NCBI GenBank assembly: GCA_016926235.1
Contig: JAFGOZ010000373.1
Location: forward strand, 27,594 to 91,593
DNA: 64,000 nt
Direction: 5' to 3'
From: Bacteroidales bacterium
GTDB lineage: Bacteria; Bacteroidota; Bacteroidia; Bacteroidales; UBA10428
Below are positions 20,595 to 24,775 of this stretch, piece after piece. The notes under the pieces were generated by a model. That model did not search any database and was not told the origin of the DNA. It saw only the letters and a program-made list of their open reading frames with translations. A program made the translations under genes and the position numbers. Numbering within the stretch: position 1 is the first letter of the stretch; each line of letters opens with the position of its first letter.

Positions 20595-21731
20595 TCACCT
20601 TCCTGCAAATAACCTGATAATATTTTCAGAAGTGTTTCTAATTAAACACTTTGCATCCTTTATTCCATCGTTTAATGTCATGGGTTTGTCCATTATTGAG
20701 AGAATAGATAAAAAGCCTTCCTTGAAAAGCTGCTCATAATCCCCAGCTATTGAACCGGCTATACCAACAACAGGTTTGCTGTACTTCTTAGCCATTTGTG
20801 CCACCCTGAAAGGTGCTTTTCCAAACAAAGTTTGGCCGTCAATCATACCTTCACCAGTGATAATTATATCGGCATGCTTAATTTTTTCCTCCAAACCTAA
20901 TGTTTCCATAATCAACTCTGCGCCTGGCACAATTGTTACTTCCATAAAGGCCATCATACCTGCAGCGATCCCCCCTGCAGCTCCGCTTCCCGGTATTTGG
21001 GAAACATCTTTACCAGTAGCAGCTTTTAAAATTTCTGCATAGTGTTCCAATGCTCTATCAAGCTTCATTACCATCTCTGGCGTTGCTCCCTTTTGTTGTG
21101 CATATGTATAAGCTGCTCCTCTAGCTCCGTATAAGGGATTTGTTACATCACATGCCAGCTTTATCCTGGTTTTGGCCAACCTCTTATCAAATTGACTTGT
21201 GTCAATACTCGCAATTTCAAGCAAAAATTGTCCTCCCTGTTGTACTTCATTGCCACACTTATCTAATAATTTTATACCCAAAGCCCGAAGCATTCCTGCT
21301 CCTCCATCGTTAGTAGCACTCCCGCCTATCCCGATAATTAAATTCTCACAACCTAAATCAAGCGTGGCTTTTATCAATTCTCCAGTACCGTAAGTTGTTG
21401 TATATGCAGGATTGCGTTCATTTTTAGTAAGCAATTCCAGCCCTGATGCAGCAGACATACCTATAACTGCTGTTTTTCCGTCACCTAATACACCAAAACA
21501 GGAATCAATTAATCTCATTAAAGGATCGTGTACGCGTGCTTTGAATATTTTACCCCCGGTCGCTTCAATCATAGCTTCAACAGTACCCTCTCCTCCATCT
21601 GCAAGAGGTACTTTTTCAATAATTGCATCAGGCAAAGCAAGCAGTATCCCCTCTTCAATACTATTTGCTACCTCACCGGAGGAAAGACAGTCTTTAAAAG
21701 AGTCTGGTGCAACTAAAATTCGCAATGACAT
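20595..21731 (-). CDS. Glycerate kinase (GarK/GlxK type)
   Basis: 378-aa type I glycerate 2-kinase, phosphorylating D-glycerate with ATP for entry to glycolysis. Motifs are ILVAPDSFKDCLSSGEVANSI at the N-terminus (quoted part: APDSFKDCLSSGEVA), VPLADGGEGTVEAM, GIGGSATNDGGAGMLRALG, the PGSGAAGGIAAGMMAF loop and DIIITGEGMIDGQT. All key Gly-rich and Asp positions are present, so the gene looks functional. The kinase gene starts 20 bp downstream, on the same strand, so co-transcription is possible although the functions are unrelated. Confidence 0.94.
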   Translation of the reverse strand: MSLRILVAPDSFKDCLSSGEVANSIEEGILLALPDAIIEKVPLADGGEGTVEAMIEATGGKIFKARVHDPLMRLIDSCFGVLGDGKTAVIGMSAASGLELLTKNERNPAYTTTYGTGELIKATLDLGCENLIIGIGGSATNDGGAGMLRALGIKLLDKCGNEVQQGGQFLLEIASIDTSQFDKRLAKTRIKLACDVTNPLYGARGAAYTYAQQKGATPEMVMKLDRALEHYAEILKAATGKDVSQIPGSGAAGGIAAGMMAFMEVTIVPGAELIMETLGLEEKIKHADIIITGEGMIDGQTLFGKAPFRVAQMAKKYSKPVVGIAGSIAGDYEQLFKEGFLSILSIMDKPMTLNDGIKDAKCLIRNTSENIIRLFAGR

Positions 21732-21800
21732 AAATTAATCTAATTAAACTAAAATTAAACTAATTTTTCTGTGCATAGCATAAATACAAAATGTTTTTCA

Positions 21801-21808
21801 TATATTTG
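21801..21808 (+). promoter_or_regulatory. Putative -7 box (TATATTTG) of the leader-peptide operon
   Basis: TATATTTG matches the Bacteroidota TAnnTTTG -7 element and lies 19 bp upstream of the first leader-peptide ATG, a spacing that gives a short leader RNA as expected for attenuation. A clear -33 TTG was not found. Confidence 0.5.
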
Positions 21809-21827
21809 TCCCAACAAACAGAAGATT

Positions 21828-21905
21828 ATGAATAACAACTTTATGTTTATCTCTCTTACCATTGTGGCGATTGCCGACAAGGACAACAGGAAGGGTATGG
21901 CATAA
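21828..21905 (+). CDS. Leader peptide 1 (25 aa) of tandem attenuator
   Basis: Short open frame ATG AAT AAC AAC TTT ATG TTT ... ATG GCA TAA encoding 25 residues: MNNNFMF, then ISLTIVAIA, then DKDNRKGMA. The hydrophobic middle is rich in Ile/Val/Ala/Leu/Thr codons. The final codons (AGG AAG GGT ATG GC) form the 5' strand of an antiterminator with the following hairpin, so the peptide most likely matters for ribosome position rather than as a product. A stall in the ISLTIVAIA stretch would leave that strand free. Start and stop coincide with the structure. This type of leader is known for amino-acid biosynthesis operons; here it is inferred. Confidence 0.7.
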   Translation: MNNNFMFISLTIVAIADKDNRKGMA

Positions 21906-21964
21906 AGTAAAATACATATAAAAAGAATTTGCAGCCATTCCCTTCCAGAATGGCTTTTTTTTTT
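21889..21964 (+). promoter_or_regulatory. Attenuator 1: antiterminator/terminator pair
   Basis: Terminator: AGCCATTC (21933-21940) pairs perfectly with GAATGGCT (21948-21955) over a 7-nt loop and ends in ten T (21955-21964). Antiterminator: GGAAGGGTATGGC (21889-21901), the end of leader peptide 1, is complementary at 12 of 13 positions to GCCATTCCCTTCC (21934-21946). The two structures are mutually exclusive. A ribosome that reaches the leader stop covers the upstream strand and lets the terminator form. A ribosome stalled earlier leaves it free and transcription continues. Confidence 0.78.
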
Positions 21965-21969
21965 GAACG

Positions 21970-22071
21970 ATGAAGAAACTAATGAACATAGCACTTATCA
22001 TTGATGCGCCAGCAGTAACCATTATAGTAGCTGTTGCGATAGCATTTATTGACACCAGCCCCCCACCATAG
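21970..22071 (+). CDS. Leader peptide 2 (33 aa) of tandem attenuator
   Basis: Open frame of 34 codons beginning 5 bp after the T-run of the first terminator: MKKLMNIALIIDAP, then AVTIIVAVAIAFI, then DTSPPP and TAG. A second ATG at 21982 is an alternative start (29 aa). The run ACC ATT ATA GTA GCT GTT GCG ATA GCA TTT ATT contains four Ile, two Val and three Ala codons, the kind of codon run that senses branched-chain aminoacyl-tRNA. The terminal CCC CCA CCA TAG codons overlap the strand that forms the antiterminator. It can be reached only by polymerases that have passed terminator 1. Confidence 0.75.
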   Translation: MKKLMNIALIIDAPAVTIIVAVAIAFIDTSPPP

Positions 22072-22141
22072 AGAAAGTATAATTAGCATAATAATAATAT
22101 ACAGGCCTTTCTCTGAACAAACGGGGGAAGGCCTTTTTTTT
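22059..22141 (+). promoter_or_regulatory. Attenuator 2: antiterminator/terminator pair
   Basis: Terminator: AGGCCTT (22103-22109) pairs with AAGGCCT (22128-22134), extended by TCTC/GGGG with two G.U pairs, and ends in eight T (22134-22141). Antiterminator: CCCCC (within 22059-22064) plus AGAGAAAG (22070-22077) at the end of leader peptide 2 is complementary to CTTTCTCT (22107-22114) plus GGGGG (22123-22127). The design is the same as in attenuator 1 but the sequences are unrelated, which argues for selection on function and against recent duplication. The aminotransferase ATG is 33 bp further on. Confidence 0.78.
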
Positions 22142-22174
22142 AATATAATTCACTAATATTAAATTATTTACACC

Positions 22175-23380
22175 ATGAAAACAGAGTATGATTCATTTCT
22201 TTCGAGCAGTTGTAAAAATATACCCAGTTCATTTTTACGAGAAATATTGGATTTAGCTACTCAACCCGGTATGATTTCTTTTGCCGGGGGACTGCCTAAT
22301 CCTGAACTCTTTCCTGTTGAACCGATTAAACAGGCTCTGCAAAAAGTGTTAACCGAAGACGGACAAAACATTCTGCAATATTCAGGAAGCCAGGGATATC
22401 TCCCTTTGCGTGAATGGCTTTGCCAGCGCTACAATAACAAGTATAGTATGAAGGTTACACCTGATATGATGCTTATAACCAGTGGTTCACAACAAGCCTT
22501 AGATTTGAGCTCAAAAATCCTCATTAATCCAGGCAATCCATTAATACTTGAAAAACCATCTTACCTGGGAGCTATTCAGGCTTTCTCTGCTTATTCACCA
22601 CAATTTATACAGGTTAAGCTTGAGCATGACGGGATAAATACAGATGATTTGGAGTATATCTTCAAGACCTTGCGGCCAAAAGTATTATATGCTATACCTA
22701 ATTTCCAGAATCCTTCAGGAATATCTTATTCACTGGAGAAGCGAATGCAGGTTGCTGAATTATTGGACAAATATAATGCTATACTGATAGAGGATGATCC
22801 TTATAATGAAGTTCGTTTTGAGGGTGACATGTTGCCTCCAATCTACTTTTTCAATCCGGAGAGAGTAATCTGGTGCGGATCGTTCTCAAAAATGCTATCG
22901 CCGGGTATCCGAACCGGCTGGATATGTTGCTCAAAAGACCTCATGCCATACTTCTTAAGAGCAAAACAGGCTACGGATCTCCATACAAACAACCTTGTAC
23001 AGAGAATGATCCACTCATATCTCATGGATCAGGATGTTGACTCACATCTTCAATCCATCCAAAAAGCTTATAAATTCCAAAAGGATACAATGAGAGAAAT
23101 GCTGCTTACCTTTTTCCCGAGAGACACCCAACTTACAAATCCCGAAGGCGGAATGTTTATCTGGGCATCACTTACAGGAAATATTAACACGAGCGACCTG
23201 GTAACAGAAGCTATAAATAACAAAGTTGTTTTTGTACCCGGAAGAACATTTTATACACAAAATGAGGGTAATGATTCAATGCGCCTCAACTTTTCTAATT
23301 CAAGTCCTATGATCATAGAGCAAGGCATACAGAAACTTGGAAAACTAATTACTAAACATTATGAAGCATTAAAAACTTAG
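22175..23380 (+). CDS. PLP-dependent aminotransferase (class I/II, LysN/2-aminoadipate-like)
   Basis: 401-aa fold-type I aminotransferase of the subgroup that includes 2-aminoadipate/LysN, aromatic and branched-chain transaminases. Motifs are ISFAGGLPNPELFP, LQYSGSQGYLPLREWL, ITSGSQQALDLSSK, IPNFQNPSG (substrate/PLP Asn), EDDPYNEVRF (Asp/Tyr), the PLP lysine in WCGSFSKMLSPGIRTGW, and MRLNFSN (carboxylate-binding Arg). The gene lies directly behind two attenuators whose leaders are rich in Ile/Val codons. A role in branched-chain amino acid metabolism is therefore the best guess, though family members are promiscuous. No other amino-acid biosynthetic gene follows in the operon. Confidence 0.88.
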   Translation: MKTEYDSFLSSSCKNIPSSFLREILDLATQPGMISFAGGLPNPELFPVEPIKQALQKVLTEDGQNILQYSGSQGYLPLREWLCQRYNNKYSMKVTPDMMLITSGSQQALDLSSKILINPGNPLILEKPSYLGAIQAFSAYSPQFIQVKLEHDGINTDDLEYIFKTLRPKVLYAIPNFQNPSGISYSLEKRMQVAELLDKYNAILIEDDPYNEVRFEGDMLPPIYFFNPERVIWCGSFSKMLSPGIRTGWICCSKDLMPYFLRAKQATDLHTNNLVQRMIHSYLMDQDVDSHLQSIQKAYKFQKDTMREMLLTFFPRDTQLTNPEGGMFIWASLTGNINTSDLVTEAINNKVVFVPGRTFYTQNEGNDSMRLNFSNSSPMIIEQGIQKLGKLITKHYEALKT

Positions 23381-23432
23381 TGTAAAATGAGAGAACAAAA
23401 ACTATATCACATCAATATCGTATATTATTTTA

Positions 23433-23440
23433 TAACTTTG
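23433..23440 (+). promoter_or_regulatory. Putative -7 box (TAACTTTG) for the amidase gene
   Basis: TAACTTTG matches TAnnTTTG and lies inside the 5' extension of the reading frame opening at 23387. This supports translation from the internal ATG at 23492 rather than from 23387. Confidence 0.45.
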
Positions 23441-23491
23441 GCATATAAATTGGTAACAATAATCATAAAACATTTAGTATTTACAATCAGG

Positions 23492-24775
23492 ATGGTAGCA
23501 TTATTTATAAAAAGAAATATATTCATTGTTTTAGTTTTAACTATTTCGCAAATTTCTTTCACTCAAACCTATAAAAGGGATACTCTAAAATTAAGTTTAC
23601 TTAAAACCTATAATAAAGAGGAAGATAGTTACATGATTAATCCTGGCATGGACGTAACCAGCCTTACATGCAAAATTGAAGAAGGAAAAACCTTTGAAGG
23701 AATGTATATTATTGCTGCCGGCGACACAATTATTCCCCAGTCTGATATCGAAAGAGGAGTAGAAAACGGACTTCTTTCTTCAGAATTGATAGTTTTCAGA
23801 AATAAAATAAGTACATTCCAATTACACGCCGGACCAGATCTGGACAAAATCATCTTCTTCTATATTAATGCATCAATACAGGAAAAAACGACACCGGAAA
23901 AAGAAGTAAAAAAAAAAGTAAGCGAAAATTGTTCCGAACCCGAAAGCGTTGATCAATCTGTTTGGAGAGAAGGATTAGCCACAAAGGAGTACACGAGGAC
24001 GGTGCATCCTGTTTACAATATTATTATCCATCATTCTGCGGGTAACATTTTAAGTGATAATTACACTCAGGTAGTAAGGGATATATACGTTTATCATACA
24101 TTTGACAGAGACTGGTCAGACATTGGATATAATTATCTGATTGCCAATGACGGAACCATATTTAAAGGCAGGGATCCGGGAGAATATGAACAGGACAATG
24201 TGATGGGTGCTCATTTTTGTGGATATAACTCCAATACAATGGGTATATGCGTTATGGGAACCTATACCGATGTCATACCATCCGATAGTGCTATTGCAAG
24301 CCTTGTATCTTTACTGACCTGGAAAATTGTAAAAGATGACCTCAATCCCCTTTTAACGCATTGGCATCCATTGAATTATTCGCTTCCTATTATTGCTGGC
24401 CACCGCGATGGCTGTGCCACAGAATGTCCGGGACAGAAATTATATGAAATGTTTCCGGAATTGCGACAACGGGTTAATGACAGTGCCCTGCTCTGTCCGG
24501 GTTGGGATCCTGACTTGGTGAATAAACACGAAGACATGGTTGATGTAGTTCTAATTTATCCAAATCCTGCGAAAGATTTCATTTATATTAAAATTGTTGA
24601 ACCTTATAAATGCATAGAAGTAACCGATATTTTGGGCAAAAAATCTAATGGCACAACAATGGATTATAGCACAGATATCGTTTCAATTAATATAAAAAAT
24701 CTAAATCCCGGATTACACTATTTATTTATACATTCCGAAACAGGCTTGATACGTAAAAAATTCATTGTTAATTAA
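23492..24775 (+). CDS. T9SS-exported N-acetylmuramoyl-L-alanine amidase (PGRP domain)
   Basis: 427-aa zinc amidase predicted to cut the peptide stem from peptidoglycan outside the cytoplasm. ATG 23492 gives a signal peptide (MVALFIKRNIFIVLVLTISQ...FTQ); an upstream ATG at 23387 would precede a likely promoter. The PGRP/Amidase_2 domain contains NIIIHHSAGN (Zn His), DIGYNYLIANDGTIFKGR, and AGHRDGCATECPGQKLY (Zn His and Cys). The last ~80 residues (VVLIYPNPAKDFIYIKI ... LNPGLHYLFIHSETG) form a type A T9SS sorting domain with the YPNP motif. It may act on foreign or its own peptidoglycan. It follows the aminotransferase on the same strand but probably has its own promoter. Confidence 0.9.
   Translation: MVALFIKRNIFIVLVLTISQISFTQTYKRDTLKLSLLKTYNKEEDSYMINPGMDVTSLTCKIEEGKTFEGMYIIAAGDTIIPQSDIERGVENGLLSSELIVFRNKISTFQLHAGPDLDKIIFFYINASIQEKTTPEKEVKKKVSENCSEPESVDQSVWREGLATKEYTRTVHPVYNIIIHHSAGNILSDNYTQVVRDIYVYHTFDRDWSDIGYNYLIANDGTIFKGRDPGEYEQDNVMGAHFCGYNSNTMGICVMGTYTDVIPSDSAIASLVSLLTWKIVKDDLNPLLTHWHPLNYSLPIIAGHRDGCATECPGQKLYEMFPELRQRVNDSALLCPGWDPDLVNKHEDMVDVVLIYPNPAKDFIYIKIVEPYKCIEVTDILGKKSNGTTMDYSTDIVSINIKNLNPGLHYLFIHSETGLIRKKFIVN

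What the first reader, a model, noticed from the sequence alone, without database searches (positions are those of the whole stretch)
21801..22174. Two tandem leader-peptide attenuators in front of one aminotransferase gene
Seen: promoter-like box, 25-codon leader, terminator with ten T, second leader of 33 codons, second terminator with eight T, then the gene. Each terminator has a competing antiterminator whose 5' strand is the last codons of its own leader peptide. The two modules have the same logic but unrelated hairpin sequences. Ribosome-mediated attenuation is known; two serial, independent translated attenuators on one gene are unusual and would act as an AND gate with a steeper response.
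Basis: partly seen in the sequence, partly recalled or inferred. Interest (0 to 1): 0.85.

Follow-up and report, generated by a model that had tools for sequence, protein, structure and literature searches.

The report
Two serial leader-peptide attenuators before aminotransferase
The gene for an amino-acid-making enzyme is guarded by two amino-acid-sensing RNA brakes in a row, a double design that recurs in related bacteria and that should make the gene switch on more sharply when valine and alanine run short.

Summary
Between a TATATTTG promoter-like box (21801) and an aminotransferase gene (22175) lie two modules, each with a leader ORF, an antiterminator strand at the leader's end and an intrinsic terminator. 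The layout is conserved: 34 distinct loci (window included) before homologous genes of Bacteroidota show both modules and three more were added by eye; a strict rule finds two modules in 27 of these 37 and in 0 of the other 100 distinct loci. Antiterminator and terminator strands match within a module (p=1e-4), not between modules. Leaders are rich in Val, Ala and Ile. Val (GTC) and Ala (GCA/GCG) codon choice exceeds that of the gene in 32 of 34 (two ties) and 33 of 34 loci; Ile codons show no shift. Four Bacillota homologues carry a T-box whose specifier I read as GUA (Val). Related genomes also have tandem leaders before ilvD (3 of 6 loci) and trpE (16 of 33), but single His leaders before hisG (6 of 6). 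Best reading: one signal read twice by serial ribosome-mediated attenuators, not a two-input AND gate. Termination, stalling and dose response are inferred.

The parts
21801..21808 (+). promoter-like -7 box TATATTTG (Bacteroidota type TAnnTTTG; consensus recalled)
   Evidence: Only exact TAnnTTTG on the + strand of 21700-22175. A TTTG box lies within 45 nt of leader 1 in 26 of 34 loci, all 26 with at least 5 of 6 consensus bases; within 45 nt of leader 2 in 14 of 34, 6 of them with at least 5 of 6. No TTTG-type -33 box seen by eye.
21828..21905 (+). leader peptide 1, 25 codons + stop
   Evidence: counterparts in 33 other loci
21889..21901 (+). antiterminator 1, 5' strand (last codons of leader 1)
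   Evidence: pair counts; own-versus-swapped test
21934..21946 (+). antiterminator 1, 3' strand (same bases as the terminator 1 5' arm and loop)
21933..21964 (+). intrinsic terminator 1: stem 21933-21955, T-run 21955-21964
   Evidence: -9.8 kcal/mol; pair counts
21970..22071 (+). leader peptide 2, 33 codons + stop
   Evidence: counterparts in 33 other loci, of which L127 lacks an ATG where expected (its in-frame ATG lies in terminator 1) and L133 begins with TTG or an earlier ATG
22069..22077 (+). antiterminator 2, 5' strand (begins at the stop codon of leader 2)
   Evidence: shuffle value 0.065 in the window alone; relatives (the window is not among the rows)
22107..22115 (+). antiterminator 2, 3' strand
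   Evidence: relatives
22103..22141 (+). intrinsic terminator 2: stem 22103-22134, T-run 22134-22141
   Evidence: -20.2 kcal/mol; relatives
22175..23380 (+). PLP aminotransferase, class I/II, 401 aa (best sequence matches among solved structures: 'multiple substrate aminotransferase' 1wst, later 2-aminoadipate transaminase 2egy)

Best explanation
A single transcript starts upstream of leader 1 and meets two ribosome-mediated attenuators in series, both tuned to the charging of the same tRNAs (Val and Ala, probably with Ile). Supplied: the ribosome runs to the leader's stop codon, covers the antiterminator 5' strand lying there, the terminator hairpin forms and RNA polymerase leaves. Starved: the ribosome stalls in the Val/Ala/Ile run upstream, the 5' strand is free, the antiterminator forms first and polymerase reads through, only to face the same test again at leader 2. 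Readthrough is thus the product of two similar probabilities: low leak and a steeper response to one signal. The enzyme probably transaminates valine (and perhaps alanine or isoleucine). Shown by sequence: both modules, conservation, matching of strands within modules, codon choice. Inferred: promoter, translation, stalling, termination, steepness, substrate.
For: Layout. Two modules at 34 loci plus 3 added by eye; strict rule: two modules in 27 of these 37 and 0 of 100 other distinct loci. In a quick aminotransferase tree the 24-row clade with the window has 23 tandem and 1 contig-truncated row. Own antiterminator partners beat swapped ones, module 1 -14.21 vs -10.05 and module 2 -16.11 vs -11.67 kcal/mol, p=1e-4 each, also with 16 representatives; cross-module p=0.80 and 0.30. 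Pair counts favour both alternative helices. Val+Ala+Ile is 43% in frame versus 8-12% in the other frames. Codon choice: GTC share higher than in the gene in 32 of 34 loci (2 ties), GCA+GCG in 33 of 34, ATC 18 up and 16 down. Nine ilv leaders are Leu-rich and Ala-poor (Ala 3.9% vs 16.5%, p=1.8e-6). T-box with specifier read as GUA and UGGU bulge in 4 Bacillota homologues. Homologues sit between ilvD and ilvB (L095, L097) or beside ilvB (L093, L096). Tandem Trp-codon leaders before trpE in 16 of 33 loci.
Against: No RNA or expression data. Against shuffles the antiterminator reaches 0.05 in only 16 of 34 loci for module 1 and 20 of 34 for module 2, and in the window module 2 only 0.065. The swap test does not remove relatedness except by the 16 representatives. 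The window has no GTC among its four leader Val codons, so Val sensing is least certain just here, and Ala/Ile may matter more. Leader ORFs were picked partly for Ile/Leu/Val/Ala content, which inflates composition (not codon choice). Between 11 independent close pairs 48 of 126 single-base codon differences are synonymous, against 24% that I assumed for chance (p=5e-4): an excess, but modest. A TTTG box is missing near leader 1 in 8 of 34 loci. Three homologous loci have one module (L074, L149, L151).
Confidence: 0.82

Rival explanations
1. Two-input AND gate: leader 1 and leader 2 sense different amino acids, and the gene is on only when both are short.
For: In the window leader 1 and leader 2 differ in detail (leader 1: 3 Ala, 1 Val, 3 Ile; leader 2: 6 Ala, 3 Val, 7 Ile).
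Against: Over 21 loci the leaders do not differ in Ala, Val, Ile or Leu share (Fisher p 0.41, 0.50, 0.53, 0.80).
Confidence: 0.1
2. Only one module works; the other is a relic or a plain safety terminator.
For: Three homologous loci have one module. Before trpE, five loci (L194, L195, L211, L214, L220) show a first Trp stretch with no ATG, GTG or TTG before it in frame and no terminator called after it before the second leader.
Against: Both modules keep leader, antiterminator strand and terminator in 34 loci, and both show strand matching.
Confidence: 0.08
3. Two alternative promoters each with its own leader, so that the modules act in parallel on different transcripts rather than in series.
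For: A TTTG box lies within 45 nt before leader 2 in 14 of 34 loci, with at least 5 of 6 consensus bases in 6.
Against: Leader 2 starts 13-49 nt after the terminator 1 stem in 31 of 34 loci (the position used for L127 is not a start codon), little room for a promoter unless it overlaps terminator 1; the box in the window (21958) is the T-run itself.
Confidence: 0.07
4. Chance: A+T-rich intergenic DNA with two terminator-like hairpins (for example of the flanking gene) and meaningless short ORFs.
For: Terminator-like sites are not rare here (5 found, 2.8 expected in 4 kb); the window's antiterminator 2 alone is near chance.
Against: Conservation, strand matching, in-frame composition and codon choice in up to 34 loci.
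Confidence: 0.01

Closest known systems
Ribosome-mediated transcription attenuation of amino acid operons (trp, his, ilv leaders of enterobacteria; recalled)
   Same: leader ORF with codons for the product, mutually exclusive antiterminator and intrinsic terminator
   Different: two complete modules in series on one gene; antiterminator strand lies at the leader's end; a separate protector hairpin was not tested
Salmonella mgtCBR leader with mgtM and mgtP (PMC3641672; abstract and section 11 read)
   Same: two short ORFs, each part of an attenuator, in one leader RNA
   Different: mgtM senses ATP and mgtP proline, i.e. different signals; its stem-loops do not resemble intrinsic terminators. 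Here both modules end in intrinsic terminators and seem to sense the same amino acids
Tandem 'pseudo-cooperative' riboswitches, e.g. tandem TPP (PMC9481103; passages read)
   Same: two independent switches in series for one ligand, each with its own decision point, giving a steeper response
   Different: those sense a metabolite by an aptamer; here the sensor is a translating ribosome
Tandem T-boxes (PMC12452182; passages read)
   Same: serial sensing of tRNA charging
   Different: direct tRNA binding (recalled); no T-box matched in the window or in the 8 Bacteroidota loci scanned
mefA/msrD operon with leader peptides MefAL and MsrDL (PMC10314930; passages read)
   Same: two ribosome-mediated transcriptional attenuators in one operon, MsrDL with an intrinsic terminator
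   Different: macrolide-sensing, and the second attenuator controls msrD only, not the same gene twice
rimP-leader with a second upstream terminator (PMC2965389; passages read)
   Same: two terminators in tandem with an antiterminator
   Different: the passages seen do not describe two translated leaders
ermB two leader peptides (PMC8274638; search listing and start of abstract only)
   Same: two leader peptides before one gene
   Different: translational attenuation induced by erythromycin

Membership tests
ribosome-mediated transcription attenuator | short translatable leader ORF in the 5' region | tested here: met
   both modules in the window and 33 other loci (start of leader 2 unclear in L127); translation itself not shown
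ribosome-mediated transcription attenuator | codons for the pathway's amino acids enriched in the leader | tested here: met
   Val/Ala/Ile 43% in frame vs 8-12% out of frame; codon choice
ribosome-mediated transcription attenuator | intrinsic terminator between leader and gene | tested here: met
   sequence and structure only:
ribosome-mediated transcription attenuator | mutually exclusive antiterminator | tested here: met
   for the set of loci; one by one 16 of 34 and 20 of 34 reach 0.05, window module 2 0.065; control by the ribosome not shown
ribosome-mediated transcription attenuator | protector (1:2) hairpin as in enterobacterial trp (recalled) | not tested
   -
ribosome-mediated transcription attenuator | expression rises when the sensed aminoacyl-tRNA is short | not testable with these tools
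   -
tandem same-signal (pseudo-cooperative) switch | two complete units, each with its own platform, wired independently | tested here: met
   within-module p=1e-4, cross-module p=0.80 and 0.30
tandem same-signal (pseudo-cooperative) switch | both units read the same signal | tested here: inconclusive
   composition of the two leaders indistinguishable over 21 loci; the signals themselves were not measured
tandem same-signal (pseudo-cooperative) switch | steeper dose response than one unit | not testable with these tools
   -
mgtCBR-type two-signal tandem attenuator | the two leaders sense different signals | tested here: not met
   by composition only
T-box | match to RF00230 at Rfam's gathering score | tested here: not met
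   no match in the window or in 8 Bacteroidota loci; matches in 4 Bacillota loci

The most novel reading that the evidence does not exclude
Serial, same-signal leader-peptide attenuators are a recurrent control design of Bacteroidota amino acid genes (this Val/Ala-sensing aminotransferase, ilvD, trpE): a ribosome-based counterpart of tandem pseudo-cooperative riboswitches, kept over long evolutionary time because the product of two readthroughs gives a sharper, less leaky response than one attenuator can.
Probability: 0.7. Interest if true: 0.72.

Novelty: new variant of a known kind. Interest (0 to 1): 0.63.

Why it matters
Attenuation by leader peptides is textbook. [quoted passage not shown] PMC3641672, abstract), and mefA/msrD and ermB sense macrolides. 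Here the same amino acid signal appears to be read twice, before several genes and in many genomes. That makes directly testable (a) whether serial attenuators sharpen a response, (b) whether transcription and translation are coupled in Bacteroidota, which this mechanism requires (inference), and (c) which tRNA isoacceptors are the sensors (the rare codon GTC, and GCA/GCG). It also predicts the substrate class of an aminotransferase that family models leave unnamed (none of the 25 best of 61 NCBIfam matches reaches its cut-off).

Tried and rejected
Rfam at gathering scores found nothing in the window nor in ten trp/ilv/his loci, although a Bacteroid-trp motif exists in print (PMC2864571, passages). 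The sigma-70 promoter scan was uninformative. A pattern search for the trp leader 1 core over 149 genomes hit one, a genome it was known from. Aspartokinase/homoserine loci: no leader with terminator recognised in the 5 examined of those found. Hairpins called at L051 -357/-237 and L004 -573/-532 were ignored as not following a leader. L126 was set aside as contig-truncated. L007 (start of leader 1 unclear), L123 (first terminator at the edge, leader 1 not seen) and L134 (both modules by eye, first T-run too short for my caller) are in the 37-locus set but not in the 34-locus statistics. From the 151 sequences, 12 duplicates and 2 weak paralogues (L087, L088) were dropped to give 137. For pair counts, 15 of 21 module 2 rows (left out: window, L001, L119, L120, L002, L132) and 20 of 21 module 1 rows (left out: L133) were aligned, because the others have other spacing or near-identical sequence; so the window's own module 2 is not. 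In one search the count 2 for L194 is one leader with two overlapping terminator calls and I count it as single; the counts 3 for L209 and L221 are two leaders. ilvD loci outside the six counted: L163, L164 and L168 showed no leader with terminator, L161, L162 and L166 none by eye, L165 (Pedobacter) one by eye, L167 not read. In one search the start position used for leader 2 was 3 nt late in L055 and not a start codon in L127. I did not predict the enzyme's structure: it would not tell the substrate.

Full report
WHAT IS THERE. The 5' region of a 401-aa class I/II aminotransferase gene (22175-23380) holds, in order: a TATATTTG box (21801), leader 1 (21828-21905), terminator 1 (stem 21933-21955, ten T to 21964), leader 2 (21970-22071), terminator 2 (stem 22103-22134, eight T to 22141), and 33 nt further the start codon. 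Each terminator's 5' arm can pair instead with a strand at the end of its own leader: 21889-21901 with 21934-21946 (twelve pairs), and 22069-22077 with 22107-22115 (nine pairs). The second strand starts at the stop codon of leader 2. Against 200 shuffles the first duplex stands out (0.005), the second only weakly (0.065).

IS IT CONSERVED. Of 155 sequences (154 loci and the window) 151 held the gene at the threshold used; without 12 duplicates and 2 weak paralogues 137 remain. Thirty-four, the window included, have two leader-plus-terminator modules and three more were added by eye (L007, L123, L134). Three have one module (L074, L149, L151), one is cut by the contig end (L126). A stricter automatic rule finds two modules in 27 of these 37 and in 0 of the other 100 loci. 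Named bearers include Prolixibacteraceae (Mangrovibacterium), Sphingobacteriaceae (Pedobacter, L036) and Cytophagaceae (L055). On a quick tree of 137 proteins the clade with the window holds 24 rows, 23 tandem and the truncated one (SH-aLRT 99); the tandem label needs 6 changes where shuffled labels need 32.7. The gene is patchy: close homologues in 27 of 198, 22 of 120, 1 of 201 (the centre itself) and 17 of 194 genomes.

ARE THE TWO SWITCHES REAL AND SEPARATE. Pairing each locus's leader-end strand with its own terminator 5' half gives -14.21 (module 1) and -16.11 kcal/mol (module 2) on average, against -10.05 and -11.67 when partners are swapped between loci; none of 10,000 permutations did as well (p=1e-4), nor with 16 representatives of distinct sequence. 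Across modules of one locus there is no preference (p=0.80 and 0.30). So each module keeps its own antiterminator. One by one, 16 of 34 (module 1) and 20 of 34 (module 2) loci reach 0.05 against shuffles. Pair counts: antiterminator 2, 79.7% of cells paired (48.2% at best when slid), 15 cells changed on both sides (7.7 in shuffles, 0 of 500 as high); terminator 2, 88.5% (71.9% slid) and 11 (2.5, 0 of 500); antiterminator 1, 92.5% (69.0% slid) and 10 (3.4, 0 of 500); terminator 1, 97.3% (61.8% slid) and 6 (2.2, 29 of 500). The number of pairs with a change on both sides (6 of 17, 4 of 17, 3 of 10, 2 of 11) is reached by 67, 8, 168 and 68 of 500 shuffles, so that measure alone is weak. In four loci (L143, L145, L146, L147) the two terminator stems are nearly the same, which suggests duplication or conversion there.

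WHAT IS SENSED. Over 34 loci leaders 1 and 2 hold Val 14.7/17.5%, Ala 15.7/13.6% and Ile 14.3/12.7%, against 3.7, 5.1 and 9.0% in 30 aminotransferase proteins. In frame the three make 43%, in the other frames 8-12%. Because ORFs were picked partly by such content, codon choice is the fairer test: the share of GTC among Val codons exceeds that of the own gene in 32 of 34 loci (2 ties, the window and L001, none lower), that of GCA+GCG among Ala codons in 33 of 34, while ATC among Ile codons goes 18 up and 16 down. So Val and Ala codons look chosen, Ile codons do not. Loci are related, so these counts are not independent events. The window is an exception for Val (no GTC among four) but not for Ala (7 of 9 GCA/GCG). 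Leaders 1 and 2 do not differ in Ala, Val, Ile or Leu (21 loci). In nine leaders before ilvD of related genomes Ala is 3.9% (here 16.5%, p=1.8e-6) and Leu 16.1% (here 8.2%, p=0.0019). Independent support: four Bacillota homologues (L018, L027, L030, L059) of 13 loci scanned have a T-box. I read their specifier loop (GAAGGUAG or AAAAGUAG) as GUA followed by a purine, and the UGGU bulge as fitting A73, both as for tRNA-Val; the reading rules are recalled. Homologues at 42-45% identity lie between ilvD and ilvB (L095, L097) or next to ilvB (L093, L096).

HOW IT WORKS (inferred). With charged tRNA-Val and tRNA-Ala the ribosome reaches the leader stop and covers the antiterminator 5' strand, so the terminator forms. 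On shortage it stalls upstream, the antiterminator forms before the terminator's 3' arm is made, and polymerase passes. It then meets leader 2, which begins 13-49 nt beyond the terminator 1 stem in 31 of 34 loci, and the decision is repeated. Expression is the product of two similar readthrough probabilities. That is a steeper response to one signal, as described for tandem 'pseudo-cooperative' riboswitches (PMC9481103, passages), not a two-input gate.

IS IT A WIDER DESIGN. ilvD was found in 12 of 14 genomes searched. Of the six loci read from the family of G003, three have two leaders and terminators (L156, L157, L160) and three have one (L155, L158, L159); among the other ilvD loci none showed two (L167 not read). 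Before hisG, six of six have one His-rich leader. Before trpE, by my count, 16 of 33 loci have two leaders with clustered Trp codons (such as IWLPWWGLL and NWWWRSNF), each with its own terminator. Trp is rare, so such pairs are very unlikely to be chance ORFs; they are the best positive control for the design. In L194, L195, L211, L214 and L220 the first Trp stretch has no ATG, GTG or TTG before it in frame and no terminator called before the second leader.

WHAT IS KNOWN. Leader-peptide attenuation in Bacteroidota is suggested in print (flavobacteria: PMC9723704, one passage; B. thetaiotaomicron: PMC7366714, passages). Tandem attenuators with two ORFs are known for mgtCBR, for two signals (PMC3641672, abstract and section 11); the mefA/msrD operon has one for each of two genes (PMC10314930, passages). 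The rimP leader has a second terminator in some species (PMC2965389, passages). Searches for tandem or double leader attenuators of amino acid genes in this phylum showed none in the listings; the library holds open-licence papers only and the listings are capped, so absence is not proof.

VERDICT. Real, conserved, and a new variant of a known kind. The decisive missing piece is RNA and reporter data.

Noticed in passing
L190-L193, L202-L204, L207, L209, L210, L212, L216-L218, L221, L226 upstream of trpE: Two successive Trp-codon leaders, each with a terminator, before trpE in 16 of 33 loci read; no Rfam match in the six of the 33 scanned (L190-L195, four of them among the 16).
   Followed up: partly
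L156, L157, L160 upstream of ilvD: Tandem Ile/Val/Leu-rich leaders with two terminators before ilvD; single leaders in L155, L158, L159.
   Followed up: partly
L194, L195, L211, L214, L220 upstream of trpE: The first Trp stretch of the double layout persists without an in-frame start codon or own terminator; in L190-L193 an inverted match (AATACAATATGGCT with AGCCATATTGGTATT, by eye, inexact in L193) brackets it. Relic or another mechanism.
   Followed up: partly
L169-L174 upstream of hisG: Single His-rich leader (for example MTFNNGHHGHHHFFLLQGRP) with a terminator in six of six genomes.
   Followed up: no
L018, L027, L030, L059: Bacillota homologues of the aminotransferase carry a T-box leader that I read as Val (GUA), a swap of sensing system for the same gene.
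   Followed up: partly
L143, L145, L146, L147: The two terminator stems of one locus are nearly identical (GAAGCCCCGGAC...TTCGGGGCTTT), pointing to duplication or conversion of modules.
   Followed up: no
window 20595-21731 (-): Glycerate kinase gene divergent from the leader region.
   Followed up: no
window 23387-24775 (+): Amidase_2 protein with a type IX secretion sorting tail directly after the aminotransferase.
   Followed up: no
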